From Bacillota bacterium (GTDB lineage Bacteria > Bacillota > Clostridia > Christensenellales > Pumilibacteraceae): a stretch of DNA of 64,000 nucleotides. The position numbers and the translations under genes were made by a program. The notes beneath the pieces were generated by a model that saw only the letters and a program-made list of their open reading frames with translations, was not told the DNA's origin and searched no databases. Position 1 is the first letter of the stretch. Every line of letters begins with the position of its first letter. Below, in pieces: positions 1 to 43,484 of this stretch. Location: positions 1 to 64,000 of the forward strand of contig WRGC01000002.1 of the NCBI GenBank assembly GCA_009787385.1, in the 5' to 3' direction.

Positions 1-46
1 CAAGGAGCAAGGAGCAAGGAGCAAGGAGCAAGGAGCAAGGAGCAAG
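1..46. repeat. 7-bp tandem repeat at window edge
   Basis: The window opens with six head-to-tail copies of CAAGGAG followed by a partial copy (CAAG). The array may continue to the left outside the window. No gene overlaps it. Nothing recognisable lies between it and position 162 apart from AT-rich sequence. Confidence 0.9.
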
Positions 47-162: not shown

Positions 163-350
163 AAGAAGTGTACAAATAAAGTATATTAAGATAGAAAAAA
201 GTAACACCTAGAATAAAATCAACCTTAAAGCGTTCGGGAGTTTGGGGGATTTTTCCCACTCCAATAGCTTTTTTGGCGTCAAAAAAGAATAATGCTACTT
301 TTGTTGATTGTTTGTATCTTATTATTAATATCCGTTACTTGTATATTCTC
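163..350 (+). mobile_element. Dispersed MITE-like repeat, copy 1
   Basis: Full copy of the window-wide family. The left end contains AGTGTACAAAT and the right end closes with GTATATTCTC. The 7-mer AAAAATT flanks it exactly on both sides (156-162 and 351-357), as expected of a target duplication. The interior has the conserved AATCAAC...AGCGTT block, a GC-rich hairpin (here with changed but still pairable bases), the hairpin around GGCGTC, and GTTGATT. It lies downstream of the SPFH-like gene ending at 476. Confidence 0.85.
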
Positions 351-475: not shown

Positions 476-1375
476 CTACAACTTGGTTTCCATAATACCT
501 ACAACACTATTGTTTCTGTATTGAGTCATATGTGATTCAATTTGCTCAACAACACTTTGCATACTAGAATCCAAAAATGCCTGTATTTTGTCTAGAGACT
601 TGTCTACCAACAAAGATACTCTATCTTCTAGCATAGTCACAATATCTTTAGAAAGTGTAGAAGATTGAGATGTTGCAATTTGTGGTGCAACTTGTTTGGC
701 TGTTATTTGATGGTTTGGTTGCCTTGTATAAGCAGTCTCTATAGGGACAGCATGCACGGCTAGACTACGCAGTGGCGACATAAATTGAAGTATCTTGAAT
801 TGCAATATCCTTATACCATACTCTTGCACCATAGTGCCAAATTTGTTAAGAAGCAACTTGTCTATCTCGGGTTTTTGCTCTTCTAGATTTTTGTATTCTA
901 TCTTCTCAGTATTGATTATTTGAAGCAAAAAACCATTGAAATGCTCTAATATCTTTGGAATAATATCTTGCTTCAAATCATATTTGCTGTACTTTGGTTT
1001 AAAGTCTATCAACTTTTCTACAAAGACCTTTGAATCATCTATACACAATTTTATTACACATCTTGCCCCCAATGCCACCATAGTATTGGTTGCAACATCT
1101 CTATATTCCAAAAAATCCTTGTTAATAAATTCGTCATCTACTATCAGTTGCTTGTTGACAAAATAATACTTATGCACAGCATTCTTTTCTCGTTTGTGCG
1201 TAGTACTCTGCTCTACAATACTTTCACTAAACTGATCATTCTTGACAAAAACTACATCAAACCCACCTATAGCTTGTATATTGATACTCTTTTTTTTGTT
1301 TTCTAAATCAGAACATGTGTACAATTTGACAAGGCTAACTGTCTTGTCACCATCAAACTTTAAGTTTATTGCCAT
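476..1375 (-). CDS. SPFH-like domain protein, single unit
   Basis: 299 residues, no signal peptide or membrane segment. I place it in the SPFH-like (YdjI / virion-core-like) group by pattern. It has an N-terminal beta-rich part with VHKYYFVNK near residue 70, then a stretch of charged and hydrophobic residues ending in YGIRILQFKI near 190, the spot where SPFH domains carry their closing FGI...F strand. The C-terminal 60 residues are amphipathic and probably coiled coil. It starts 23 bases after the stop of the larger paralogue at 1399-3387, so the two form an operon. An AAGGGG motif lies upstream at a long spacing. Role unknown; SPFH proteins usually scaffold membrane or stress assemblies. 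The family call is inference from motifs and was not checked by a profile search. Confidence 0.6.
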   Translation of the reverse strand: MAINLKFDGDKTVSLVKLYTCSDLENKKKSINIQAIGGFDVVFVKNDQFSESIVEQSTTHKREKNAVHKYYFVNKQLIVDDEFINKDFLEYRDVATNTMVALGARCVIKLCIDDSKVFVEKLIDFKPKYSKYDLKQDIIPKILEHFNGFLLQIINTEKIEYKNLEEQKPEIDKLLLNKFGTMVQEYGIRILQFKILQFMSPLRSLAVHAVPIETAYTRQPNHQITAKQVAPQIATSQSSTLSKDIVTMLEDRVSLLVDKSLDKIQAFLDSSMQSVVEQIESHMTQYRNNSVVGIMETKL

Positions 1376-1398
1376 AATATTTAGGATATTCCCCTTTC

Positions 1399-3387
1399 CT
1401 AGTTGTTGCCATAAAAAGTATACGAACTAAAGTTTTGTTTAAAGGCATTGCCATCTTTACTATCTTTGCTTGCAACTTCTTCAGTACTATCACTTTGTGT
1501 CGTAGTATTATTTGGATTTTCACAATCTTTTTCAGTATCTATACCATTTTTTCTATCCTTGTCTCTATTAAACTTTTGTATTATTGTCATATCTATAGGA
1601 AATTTTTCTACATTAAACTCTAGTATTTTTACTCCAAATTTTTTGAGATATTTATTGATTGACAACAAGAATGAATCTATCAAAAATCTTCTAACTCCAT
1701 CTAAATTAACCACACTCAATTGGTTGATTATGACATACTCAATAAAATGTATATCAAACCTATAAATTATCTTTGGCAAAATTATGTCATTGATATATTG
1801 TTGATAATTTTCATCACCTATATAGTTGTCCAATATTTCAACTTCCATGCCACCATTGGCACAAATAGTAGTTATTTTGCCTGTATAGTCATCTGCAAAG
1901 TTGCTCTTACCGCTAGACCATGTAAGTTGTACAACTTCATTTTGTTTTGTTGATACAATTTCTTGTATATCTACAACAGACAAATCAAGTTTGTATATAT
2001 CAAATTCTTTTAGCTCCACACCAATTTCCATCAACTGACTATTTGCATATTCCAAAAACAACTTTGCTATACATTGATTGAATCCATTCAACTCGTCAAT
2101 TTGTACCCCATTGTGACGCCATTGTGGCATAAAATATTGAAGATAATCTATTAGTTTATCTTGTAATAAATTTTTTACACCTTCAAAATCATCTTCTATA
2201 GCAACAAAACCAGACTCTAACAAAACTTCATTCAACAAATAATAGTCAGATATACAAAACTTGTAGTTGCTAGCAACTTTTACTTGTACATCTTTATGTT
2301 CAACAGTATCATTAAATTGTACCAAATACTCTATACTATCACTATAACTATAATCAATAGGTGCTTCTATAGGTTGCAATTGTACATCAAAATTGCTTAT
2401 ACTAAAATTGTCAAACTCTATACCTATTTTATTAAACTCTCTATTGGCATAATGCAAAAACAATAGCTCTACATCATTCTTAAAGTCAACTAATTTATCG
2501 CCAAAAATACCCTTTTGACACCACTTTGGCAAGAATTGAACAACTAGATTTTGTATTTTATCATGTACTGTATTTTTGACATTGTCAATATTGGCAGACA
2601 ATGCATTTGCTCTCAAAACATTGTTGATATCATTGTGATTGATTACTTTAAAATCATAGTCACCATTTAGATTTATTTTAATATCATTGCGATTTAGACT
2701 ATCTACAAATGCTATTTGGTCTACAATACTAAAAGATTGTTGTATTTGGTCATTATTAAATTTGCGTGCTATTTCAAACTTTTCTACATCAAACGCTATA
2801 AGACTCAAACCAAATTTGGACAATGTTTGTCGCAATTTTTCTTTAAATGTATTGACAATGTCTTGCTTGTATTGGTCAATAGTAGACAATACCAAACACT
2901 TATCATCACAAAAAGCAACAAAGTGAGCTTCAAATCGCTTCAATACTATAGGTACAACCAAATTCTTCAATTCACCAACATTGTATTCTGCACTACCTTG
3001 TACCACTGTTTGCAAAAATTTTAAGGAATCAAATACTTCAAAACTCAATTTTCCATTAGGTTTTATAAAACAATCAAAACTAGGTGACAACTTTTTTAGT
3101 ACAATAGGATTGTCCATCACCCACTCATCAGACACTACTGTTCCTGTATTGATATAGGTATACTTATACACTTCATGTTTTTTAACCTTTTTATGCCTAA
3201 GCATATTTTTGGGCTTAGATGTTCTATCGTATACTAGAATATTTTTTGAGTCATCAATAGTGAGTACAATATCAAACTCTCCTCTAGTAAATACATCTAT
3301 CTTTTTCTCTCTATTATTGTCTACAACATATACTTTTGCCACATTGACAGAAGGCTTGCCATCATACTCTACTCTAAATATACCCAT
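1399..3387 (-). CDS. Large protein with four tandem SPFH-like units
   Basis: 662 residues. The N-terminus (MGIFRVEYDG) and the KYTYIN motif near residue 75 match the 299-residue neighbour, so they are paralogues. The closing motif of the SPFH-like unit recurs four times at near-constant spacing: FGLSLIAFDVEKF (about 192), IGIEFDNFSISNF (about 321), IGVELKEFDIYKL (about 455) and FGVKILEFNVEKF (about 584), that is every 129-134 residues. The last 60 residues are Asn/Ser/Asp-rich and probably disordered. No membrane segment or zinc ribbon is visible. The start has a clear AGGAG 8 bases upstream. It is the first gene of a two-gene operon. Function unknown; a multi-unit scaffold is my inference. 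Confidence 0.6.
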   Translation of the reverse strand: MGIFRVEYDGKPSVNVAKVYVVDNNREKKIDVFTRGEFDIVLTIDDSKNILVYDRTSKPKNMLRHKKVKKHEVYKYTYINTGTVVSDEWVMDNPIVLKKLSPSFDCFIKPNGKLSFEVFDSLKFLQTVVQGSAEYNVGELKNLVVPIVLKRFEAHFVAFCDDKCLVLSTIDQYKQDIVNTFKEKLRQTLSKFGLSLIAFDVEKFEIARKFNNDQIQQSFSIVDQIAFVDSLNRNDIKINLNGDYDFKVINHNDINNVLRANALSANIDNVKNTVHDKIQNLVVQFLPKWCQKGIFGDKLVDFKNDVELLFLHYANREFNKIGIEFDNFSISNFDVQLQPIEAPIDYSYSDSIEYLVQFNDTVEHKDVQVKVASNYKFCISDYYLLNEVLLESGFVAIEDDFEGVKNLLQDKLIDYLQYFMPQWRHNGVQIDELNGFNQCIAKLFLEYANSQLMEIGVELKEFDIYKLDLSVVDIQEIVSTKQNEVVQLTWSSGKSNFADDYTGKITTICANGGMEVEILDNYIGDENYQQYINDIILPKIIYRFDIHFIEYVIINQLSVVNLDGVRRFLIDSFLLSINKYLKKFGVKILEFNVEKFPIDMTIIQKFNRDKDRKNGIDTEKDCENPNNTTTQSDSTEEVASKDSKDGNAFKQNFSSYTFYGNN

Positions 3388-3545: not shown

Positions 3546-3727
3546 AAGGAGTATATAAATAGATTAGATTAAGAAAGAAAGGAACAGACTTAAATAAAAA
3601 CAACCTTAAAGCGTTTGGGGGGTTGATGGGATTCCCCAAGAGCTTTTTTGGAGTCAAAACACCTGTTTTGCTGATTGTTGGTATTTTGTTGTTTAATCTA
3701 CGCTAGTTGTACCTCTCCAATAGAGTA
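3546..3727 (+). mobile_element. Dispersed MITE-like repeat, copy 2
   Basis: 182 bp from AAGGAGTATAT to TTGTACCTCTC. It is flanked exactly by CAATAGA at 3539-3545 and 3728-3734 (7-bp target duplication). The second internal hairpin is shortened. It lies between tRNA-Val and the SPFH-like operon. Confidence 0.85.
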
Positions 3728-41417: not shown

Positions 41418-43484
41418 TTAGAACGAAGCAATCAATACATTAGACCACTGACTCAATTTGTCTACATTATTCAAAGCCCTAACTCTAGCTTGCACCAATC
41501 CACTTACACTAGACGGGAATGTGAGACTTGTCTCAGTTTGAATATAATCCGTACCATTAATCATAAAGTGATATGCTGTTGCACCACTTACAGGCTGCCA
41601 CATAGCTGTCCACCCACCAAAACCTAGTGATGGTGTAGGCAAATTGTTTTCTGTAGGTGTTCCGTTGATAGTATCACTATCCATTTCTACATCTGGATCA
41701 AAGGTAATTGCATTTGACCATGAACCTGTAGAAGAACCACTTACAGCCCTAACCTTGACTGTATGCTTGCCCGATGACCAATCTGTGAAGTATTGAGTAT
41801 AGTTTGTTCCTGAAACAACTTGATTGTCATCTACTGATATATCATATCCTGTTGCTCCTGCTACTGGATTCCAGAATATTGCCCTAACTCTACCGCCCCC
41901 GCCTTCCAACGGCCAATCTTCTACCAATCCTATAAAAGGAGTAGCCAAATTGGAGTCTGATTGTCCAATACTCAAACCTATTGATTTAGAGAAGCTTGAA
42001 TACAAATTAGGGTGACCGCTCATATGTGCTCTTACTCCTATAGAATGAACGCCATTACCAAGTCCTGCAATACTGTACTCAGTAGTCTTTTGTTCGTTAA
42101 ACATCTTGCCATCTATACACACTTCATATCCTGTAGCTCCAGTGACAGCACCCCATGAAAGAGTAGTACCATTAATCACAGCAGTTGGTACTGCCAATCC
42201 TACAGTTGGTCTTACTACATTAGACCATTCTGATACTTCGTTACCATTTCTAGATCTTACAAAACATACCCTTACACCTGGTTCTTTTCCCAAATCCTTG
42301 CCTAAAAAGAATAATCCTGTTTGATTAGTAATAACTTCATTGATTTTTACATCATAACTAGTAGCACCATTGATAGCACCCCACTGTATTCTTTGGTGAA
42401 GATAAATTATACTTGGAGAAATTAGATTGCCAACTATACCAGGTTGTTCTCCACCACCTGTGTCGCCGCCACCTTGGTTTCCTCCACCTGTGTCGCCGCC
42501 GCCACCTTGATTTCCGCCACCTGTATCACCGCCGCCACCTTGGTTTCCTCCACCTGTGTCGCCACCACCTTGACCACTTCCCACTATCAAATCAATAGGG
42601 TCTGACCATTCACCTACACTAGGACCGTTGATAGCTCTTGTCTTGATAGTATAAGAAGCATCTGGCAAACTAGAAGTATCAAAAGATACTGCTGTCTTTT
42701 GTGTTATGTTGCCATTGATAGATACTTCGTATCTAGTAGCACCCTTAACCGGACTCCAAGAAACTTCTCTAGCATATTTTTTCAATACTGGAGCTCTCAA
42801 TGGATTGTGTTCTTGCAAGAAAAATTCTGGTCCTGACCAAAATGAGTCATTAAATACTTCTACATCACTAATTGCACGAACCTTGACTTGATGAATACCG
42901 TCATATAACTCGTTGAGATCAAATGTAGTTTCTTTGACTTGTGCTATTTCCTCACCATTGACACTTATACCATATCCTTCAGCATTTGGGATACTCTCCC
43001 ACTCCAATACATTATCTCCTCTCATTTTTGGTTGTGGAGCAGCAAGATTGAGAGTCACACCTTCATAAGTAGAATAGTCTACATCAACTGATTTTGACAT
43101 AAGTTCGCTAGAGATATCATCAGTATCTACAGCAACTACCGAAATTTTGTAATCACTTGGAAATAAGTCATTAACAATAAACTCATTACTGTAAGATGTC
43201 CCCAAAAAACTATGTTCATCGCCCAAATATACCCTATAAGACTTTGCATTGGGTACAATATCCCACATAACAGTATTTCCTACTACTCTTACATTTTGAG
43301 GAGCAGGCAATCCATTTTGGCTATGAAAATTATCTTCTTTATGTTTGTTGATTGATGACATAACTATTGCAACTATTATAGCTGTTACCAACAGTGCCGC
43401 ACCAATTATAAGCCACAACTTAAGCTTGCTATTGTTGTTAGTAGCAACATGAGTTGGACGGCTATTGCGTCTTGTACTTGGCAT
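41418..43484 (-). CDS. Anchored surface protein with fibronectin-III-like repeats
   Basis: 688 residues. A short basic tail, a membrane anchor (about 22-43: LWLIIGAALLVTAIIVAIV), then six or more fibronectin-III-like units of about 85 residues, each with a W-x-x-(I/V)-x-(N/G)A-x-x-Y core (WDIVPNAKSYRVY, WESIPNAEGYGISV, WGAVTGATGYEVCI). A Gly/Asp/Asn linker made of repeated GGGGDTGGGNQ separates the N- and C-terminal halves. No enzyme domain or sortase motif. AAGGAG lies 11 bases before the ATG. Likely an extracellular binding protein. Confidence 0.8.
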   Translation of the reverse strand: MPSTRRNSRPTHVATNNNSKLKLWLIIGAALLVTAIIVAIVMSSINKHKEDNFHSQNGLPAPQNVRVVGNTVMWDIVPNAKSYRVYLGDEHSFLGTSYSNEFIVNDLFPSDYKISVVAVDTDDISSELMSKSVDVDYSTYEGVTLNLAAPQPKMRGDNVLEWESIPNAEGYGISVNGEEIAQVKETTFDLNELYDGIHQVKVRAISDVEVFNDSFWSGPEFFLQEHNPLRAPVLKKYAREVSWSPVKGATRYEVSINGNITQKTAVSFDTSSLPDASYTIKTRAINGPSVGEWSDPIDLIVGSGQGGGDTGGGNQGGGGDTGGGNQGGGGDTGGGNQGGGDTGGGEQPGIVGNLISPSIIYLHQRIQWGAINGATSYDVKINEVITNQTGLFFLGKDLGKEPGVRVCFVRSRNGNEVSEWSNVVRPTVGLAVPTAVINGTTLSWGAVTGATGYEVCIDGKMFNEQKTTEYSIAGLGNGVHSIGVRAHMSGHPNLYSSFSKSIGLSIGQSDSNLATPFIGLVEDWPLEGGGGRVRAIFWNPVAGATGYDISVDDNQVVSGTNYTQYFTDWSSGKHTVKVRAVSGSSTGSWSNAITFDPDVEMDSDTINGTPTENNLPTPSLGFGGWTAMWQPVSGATAYHFMINGTDYIQTETSLTFPSSVSGLVQARVRALNNVDKLSQWSNVLIASF
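42451..42572 (-). repeat. In-frame minisatellite coding the Gly-rich linker
   Basis: Four imperfect copies of an approximately 33-bp unit (CCACCTGTGTCGCCGCC... on the plus strand), each coding GGGGDTGGGNQ. Locally GC-rich in an AT-rich genome; the number of units could vary between strains. Confidence 0.8.

What the first reader, a model, noticed from the sequence alone, without database searches (positions are those of the whole stretch)
476..3387. A four-unit SPFH-like protein with a single-unit partner
The 662-residue protein repeats the SPFH-type closing motif ((F/I)G-x-x-(L/F)-x-x-F) four times every 129-134 residues; the 299-residue gene has it once. SPFH proteins usually carry one domain per chain and form rings from many chains. 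A chain with four tandem, divergent units next to a single-unit paralogue could be a pre-linked scaffold.
Basis: inference. Interest (0 to 1): 0.6.

Follow-up and report, generated by a model that had tools for sequence, protein, structure and literature searches.

The report
Tandem SPFH protein with single-unit partner
Next to a normal one-unit relative, this bacterium carries a protein that strings four copies of a membrane-scaffold domain (SPFH) in one chain, whereas all other SPFH proteins listed from about 1,190 sampled related genomes have only one; what the longer chain builds is still a guess.

Summary
The 662-aa protein contains four divergent SPFH units. Their closing motifs sit at residues 192, 321, 455 and 584, so the spacings are 129, 134 and 129. 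Each unit matches a profile built from 28 single-unit relatives. The second unit folds as SPFH at pLDDT 92.5, and its best solved matches are stomatin and flotillin. The 299-aa neighbour, 23 bp downstream on the same strand, has one unit.

One correction: the repeated part is only the second half of the domain (SPFH2). Only the first unit has a recognisable first half (SPFH1). The chain is therefore SPFH1-(SPFH2)x4, without transmembrane helix, zinc ribbon or long coiled coil. Units 2 and 3 are a clear duplicate pair; units 1 and 4 are probably another.

No other multi-unit chain turned up in about 1,190 genomes of the phylum (the same-genus genome included), in phages, plasmids or viral contigs. 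The closest relatives are YdjI-like SPFH proteins, the nearest of them next to TIR/zinc-ribbon genes. No such partner is visible here, but the contig ends 475 bp past the pair.

Best reading: a new SPFH architecture, a covalently extended cytosolic scaffold. Stacked versus side-by-side units cannot be decided here.

The parts
1399..3387 (-). 662-aa protein, SPFH1-(SPFH2)x4-tail
   Evidence: ORF, Band_7_1 E 1.3e-10, four HMM domains, coding
3121..3387 (-). N-terminal SPFH1-like half, residues 1-89 (divergent)
   Evidence: aligns with the first half of relatives and with the 299-aa protein; low AlphaFold confidence, so partly inferred
2743..3120 (-). SPFH2 unit 1 (type A), residues 90-215
   Evidence: 63 bits against shuffles at most 5.6; pLDDT mostly above 90
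2347..2742 (-). SPFH2 unit 2 (type B), residues 216-347
   Evidence: 35 bits; pLDDT 92.5 and SPFH matches
1945..2346 (-). SPFH2 unit 3 (type B), residues 348-481
   Evidence: 23 bits; sister of unit 2, z 24.8, support 100/99
1552..1944 (-). SPFH2 unit 4 (type A), residues 482-612
   Evidence: 16 bits; alone finds SPFH relatives at E 4e-8; z 17.2 with unit 1
1402..1551 (-). polar C-terminal tail, residues 613-662, predicted disordered
   Evidence: pLDDT about 30-40
476..1375 (-). 299-aa partner gene, SPFH1-SPFH2-helix
   Evidence: ORF, Band_7_1 E 7e-6; 23 bp after the 662-aa gene
761..1117 (-). single SPFH2 unit of the 299-aa protein, residues 87-205
   Evidence: 54 bits; nearest to L002 and L023
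479..760 (-). C-terminal region of the 299-aa protein, residues 206-299, helix-like by its sequence
   Evidence: sequence only; not modelled

Best explanation
The 662-aa protein is an SPFH-family protein whose SPFH2 half has been multiplied to four inside one chain: SPFH1-SPFH2(A)-SPFH2(B)-SPFH2(B)-SPFH2(A)-tail. The 299-aa neighbour keeps the ordinary SPFH1-SPFH2-helix layout. Most likely both are soluble proteins that are recruited to the inside of the membrane and oligomerise through SPFH contacts. The long chain acts as an extended scaffold in which the extra SPFH2 units take the place of the coiled-coil wall of ordinary SPFH cages, leading away from the single SPFH1. Shown: the four units, their fold class, the single SPFH1-like region, the lack of a transmembrane helix, the gene pairing. 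Inferred: joint assembly, membrane recruitment, the stacked arrangement. I put the architecture itself at about 0.95, an SPFH-type scaffold role at about 0.65, and the stacked arrangement at about 0.35.
For: Four HMM domains above all shuffles; units-only profile finds flotillin-2; unit 2 modelled as SPFH; only residues 1-89 correspond to SPFH1; no hydrophobic segment long enough for a membrane span; two genes 23 bp apart on one strand. In solved cages SPFH1 lies at the membrane and the chain continues after SPFH2 into a long helix wall (PMC12624060); YdjI is soluble and needs membrane partners (PMC8581546).
Against: The full-length model is poor beyond unit 1, so the arrangement of the units is unknown. 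No complex was modelled. No membrane partner gene is next to the pair, and no PspA is in the genome. The pair is known from one genome only.
Confidence: 0.45

Rival explanations
1. Pre-linked ring segment: the four SPFH2 units occupy four neighbouring positions of one ring, so each chain supplies a fixed, ordered arc, and the 299-aa protein fills or caps the ring.
For: SPFH proteins assemble by neighbouring SPFH2 contacts (PMC12624060). The AlphaFold secondary structure leaves roughly 10-40 residues between units, enough for a return path. Divergent units would fix an order.
Against: Ring positions at the membrane would be expected to keep SPFH1, but units 2-4 lack it. In ordinary cages the chain enters SPFH2 from the membrane side and leaves on the far side, so a side-by-side tandem has to double back.
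Confidence: 0.25
2. Beads on a string: the extra SPFH2 units no longer make rings but serve as binding surfaces for other proteins, and the 299-aa protein is the assembling subunit.
For: The B units are strongly diverged from all other SPFH domains (branch 3.65; weak matches). The polar tail and the lack of a long coiled coil do not suggest a cage.
Against: No binding partner is known; the fold is retained in all four units.
Confidence: 0.2
3. A lineage-specific duplicate without a selected function, drifting.
For: Found in one genome only; absent from the same-genus genome and from the matching mutS2 locus there; the units differ greatly.
Against: The frame is intact over 662 codons with normal codon usage. 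The units are divergent yet still recognisable and foldable, which implies selection on the fold.
Confidence: 0.1

Closest known systems
YdjI-like SPFH proteins (Pfam PF13421 Band_7_1), including the canonical copy in this genome (G000 C33:13519-14148, 373 aa)
   Same: SPFH1-SPFH2 sequence family, no transmembrane helix
   Different: One SPFH2 per chain, C-terminal zinc ribbons, usually a zinc-ribbon gene next door; the window proteins have no zinc ribbon and one has four SPFH2 units
Single-unit SPFH proteins next to TIR/zinc-ribbon genes (L002 in G020, L023 in G134)
   Same: Nearest relatives of the 299-aa unit (z 24.9 and 22.4) and of unit 4, same longer loop before the last helix
   Different: Zinc ribbon at the C-terminus and a TIR/zinc-ribbon gene adjacent; neither is seen at the window pair
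Flotillin, stomatin, prohibitin cages
   Same: SPFH2 fold, sequence match to flotillin-2
   Different: One SPFH1 and one SPFH2 per chain, membrane anchor or span, long coiled coil (PMC12624060)
Major vault protein
   Same: One chain with many stacked domains and an SPFH-like shoulder (general knowledge); a weak fold match to the full-length model (E 0.015, prob 0.69)
   Different: Vault repeats are a different fold and the SPFH-like shoulder is single (general knowledge); no sequence match found

Membership tests
SPFH / Band 7 superfamily | SPFH domain by sequence | tested here: met
   Band_7_1 above cut-off for both proteins; profile match to flotillin-2
SPFH / Band 7 superfamily | SPFH2 fold | tested here: met
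   Units 1 and 2 modelled with high confidence and matched to SPFH structures; units 3 and 4 by sequence only
SPFH / Band 7 superfamily | Oligomeric ring or cage at a membrane | not testable with these tools
   No complex could be modelled
YdjI (Psp-associated SPFH) | C-terminal zinc ribbon | tested here: not met
   Neither window protein has one; no zinc-ribbon family match, 8 and 3 cysteines in all
YdjI (Psp-associated SPFH) | pspA in the genome or operon | tested here: not met
   No PspA_IM30 match in the genome, 90.5% complete
Flotillin / prohibitin / stomatin | N-terminal membrane anchor or span and long coiled coil after SPFH2 | tested here: not met
   Highest 19-residue hydropathy 1.22 and 1.46; after unit 4 only a short helix and a disordered tail
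L002/L023-type SPFH with TIR partner | Adjacent TIR/zinc-ribbon gene | tested here: inconclusive
   None on the visible side, no TIR_2 match in the genome; the contig ends 475 bp beyond the 299-aa gene

The most novel reading that the evidence does not exclude
A bacterial SPFH protein that builds its wall from stacked, covalently linked SPFH2 domains instead of a coiled coil: a new kind of SPFH cage or rod, vault-like in design but evolved separately, with the 299-aa protein as its membrane-proximal or capping subunit.
Probability: 0.25. Interest if true: 0.75.

Novelty: new variant of a known kind. Interest (0 to 1): 0.5.

Why it matters
SPFH proteins are found across life, and the solved cages hold one SPFH1-SPFH2 pair per chain. 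A chain with one SPFH1 and four SPFH2 units separates the two halves in evolution. It gives a natural test of which half makes ring contacts and which sets the distance from the membrane, and it could fix the order and number of units in an assembly that otherwise forms from separate chains.

Tried and rejected
Close relatives of the 662-aa protein: none in genome contigs or viral contigs, phages or plasmids; of the 299-aa protein: none in genome contigs. Misassembly: rejected, because the units are too different (about 14-29% identity) to be an assembly repeat and the frame is unbroken. A chance motif: rejected by shuffles. Simple AB-AB duplication: rejected, since unit 2 pairs with 3 and unit 1 with 4. 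The 1-4 pairing is only moderate, because both also score highly with single-unit relatives and the tree does not join them. Defence-system membership: no PADLOC match. PspA partner: none in the genome. The two repeats flanking the pair as a mobile-cassette mark: rejected, because the repeat is genome-wide.

Full report
What is there. Two genes on the minus strand, 1399-3387 (662 aa) and 476-1375 (299 aa), are separated by 23 bp. Both show the codon usage of the window's housekeeping genes in frame and not in the shifted frames, and the 662-aa gene has an AGGAG upstream. Upstream of the pair on the same strand are a tRNA-Val, a 232-aa integral membrane protein behind an FMN riboswitch (probably the riboflavin ECF transporter, inferred from the riboswitch), and genes that I read as mutS2 and pheT from their sequence. 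Downstream the contig ends after 475 bp, so that side is unseen (the window is G000 contig 2 from base 1).

Check of the motif. A loose form of the closing motif occurs at residues 192, 321, 455 and 584, spacing 129, 134 and 129, and once (186) in the 299-aa protein. The repeat itself is real. BLASTP does not detect it within the protein, but an HMM built from 28 single-unit relatives finds four domains in order. Cut out and scored separately, the units reach 63, 35, 23 and 16 bits, against at most 7.9 for shuffled versions.

Family. Pfam assigns Band_7_1 above its cut-off to both proteins. A profile made only of the five window units finds mouse flotillin-2 in the PDB (E 2.2e-5, 1.8e-4 and 3.4e-3 for three chains). 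The strictest test uses only units 2 and 3. They find SPFH relatives at E 5e-6 to 2e-4 and no unrelated protein among 123 further ORFs; the rows from that set are the query itself and the same SPFH genes seen in other loci. Against the PDB they reach only E 0.67 for flotillin-2, behind an unrelated protein at 0.23. So the B units are SPFH, but distant.

Structure. AlphaFold2 on the full chain with 26 other rows gives unit 1 at pLDDT mostly above 90 and the rest around 30-70; Foldseek returns flotillin, stomatin and prohibitin. Unit 2 alone, with the SPFH2 alignment, gives pLDDT 92.5 and pTM 0.83, and its top matches are all SPFH domains (stomatin E 1.5e-4, TM up to 0.72 by target). This second model leans on an alignment of true SPFH sequences, so it shows that unit 2 is compatible with the fold rather than proving it from its own sequence alone.

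Only SPFH2 is repeated. The alignment with relatives places the N-terminal part of both proteins (residues 1-89 of the long one) on the first half of the domain and the units on the second half. The two window proteins align over residues 6-204 and 5-198 (E 1.3e-11). Units 2-4 start where SPFH2 starts. In solved human cages each chain has one of each, with SPFH1 at the membrane and a long helix after SPFH2 (PMC12624060).

History. Unit 2 and unit 3 are sisters (z 24.8; support 100/99). Units 1 and 4 have each other as highest raw-score partner (118), but each also scores about as well, in z, with single-unit relatives, and the tree does not join them, so a second duplication is likely, not proven. 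The order A-B-B-A argues against a simple doubling of a two-unit block.

Distribution. No other open frame with two units was listed in 396 genomes of the order, 391 of the class (the list of weaker matches was cut) or 398 of the phylum; together about 1,190 different genomes by handle number. The same-genus genome has no match, and its mutS2-pheT-pheS locus lacks the pair. Nothing was found in genome contigs, viral contigs, phages or plasmids at the sensitivity of those tools. The literature search found no described chain of several SPFH2 units; the single use of 'tandem SPFH' means SPFH1 followed by SPFH2. The library lacks most subscription journals.

Context of relatives. The nearest single-unit proteins (L002 in G020, L023 in G134) carry zinc ribbons and sit next to a zinc-ribbon protein with a TIR domain (in L113 the TIR match is below Pfam's cut-off). 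The canonical SPFH protein of this genome (G000 contig 33) sits before a zinc-ribbon protein. The tandem pair has no zinc ribbon, the genome has no TIR_2 or PspA match, and no PADLOC family matches.

How it may work. Neither protein has a transmembrane segment, so they should be soluble, like YdjI, which needs membrane partners for recruitment (PMC8581546). With a single SPFH1 at the N-terminus and no long coiled coil, I favour a chain leading away from the membrane, with SPFH2 units in place of the helical wall. This step is inference; no complex was modelled.

Verdict. It is a new architecture within the SPFH family, so far seen in one genome.

Noticed in passing
window 212-284, 3593-3659 and about 10 further intergenic places up to 58080: A dispersed intergenic repeat of roughly 70-150 bp (CAACCTTAAAGCGTTYGGG ... 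G-rich/C-rich hairpin ... TTCTTTTTTGGCGTCAAAA), on both strands; 127 core matches in the genome against 0 for the reversed control; no Rfam match.
   Followed up: partly
L113:2371-6331, L111:5249-8388, L114:901-5474: In related genomes, single-unit SPFH genes sit next to zinc-ribbon genes with TIR domains, some with leucine-rich repeats: a possible SPFH-TIR module with no PADLOC match for the one tested.
   Followed up: partly
L114:3475-4065, L115:3785-4357: Small charged, helix-like proteins of about 190 aa without Pfam match lie near SPFH genes; by eye they resemble ESCRT-III/PspA-type helical proteins, untested.
   Followed up: no
window 1-46: A perfect 7-bp tandem repeat (CAAGGAG, 6.6 copies) at the very contig end, perhaps the reason why the assembly stops there.
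   Followed up: no
window 41418-43484: A 688-aa protein with a glycine-rich GGGNQGGGGDTGG array (DNA repeat at 42450-42570) between repeated units that look fibronectin-like.
   Followed up: no
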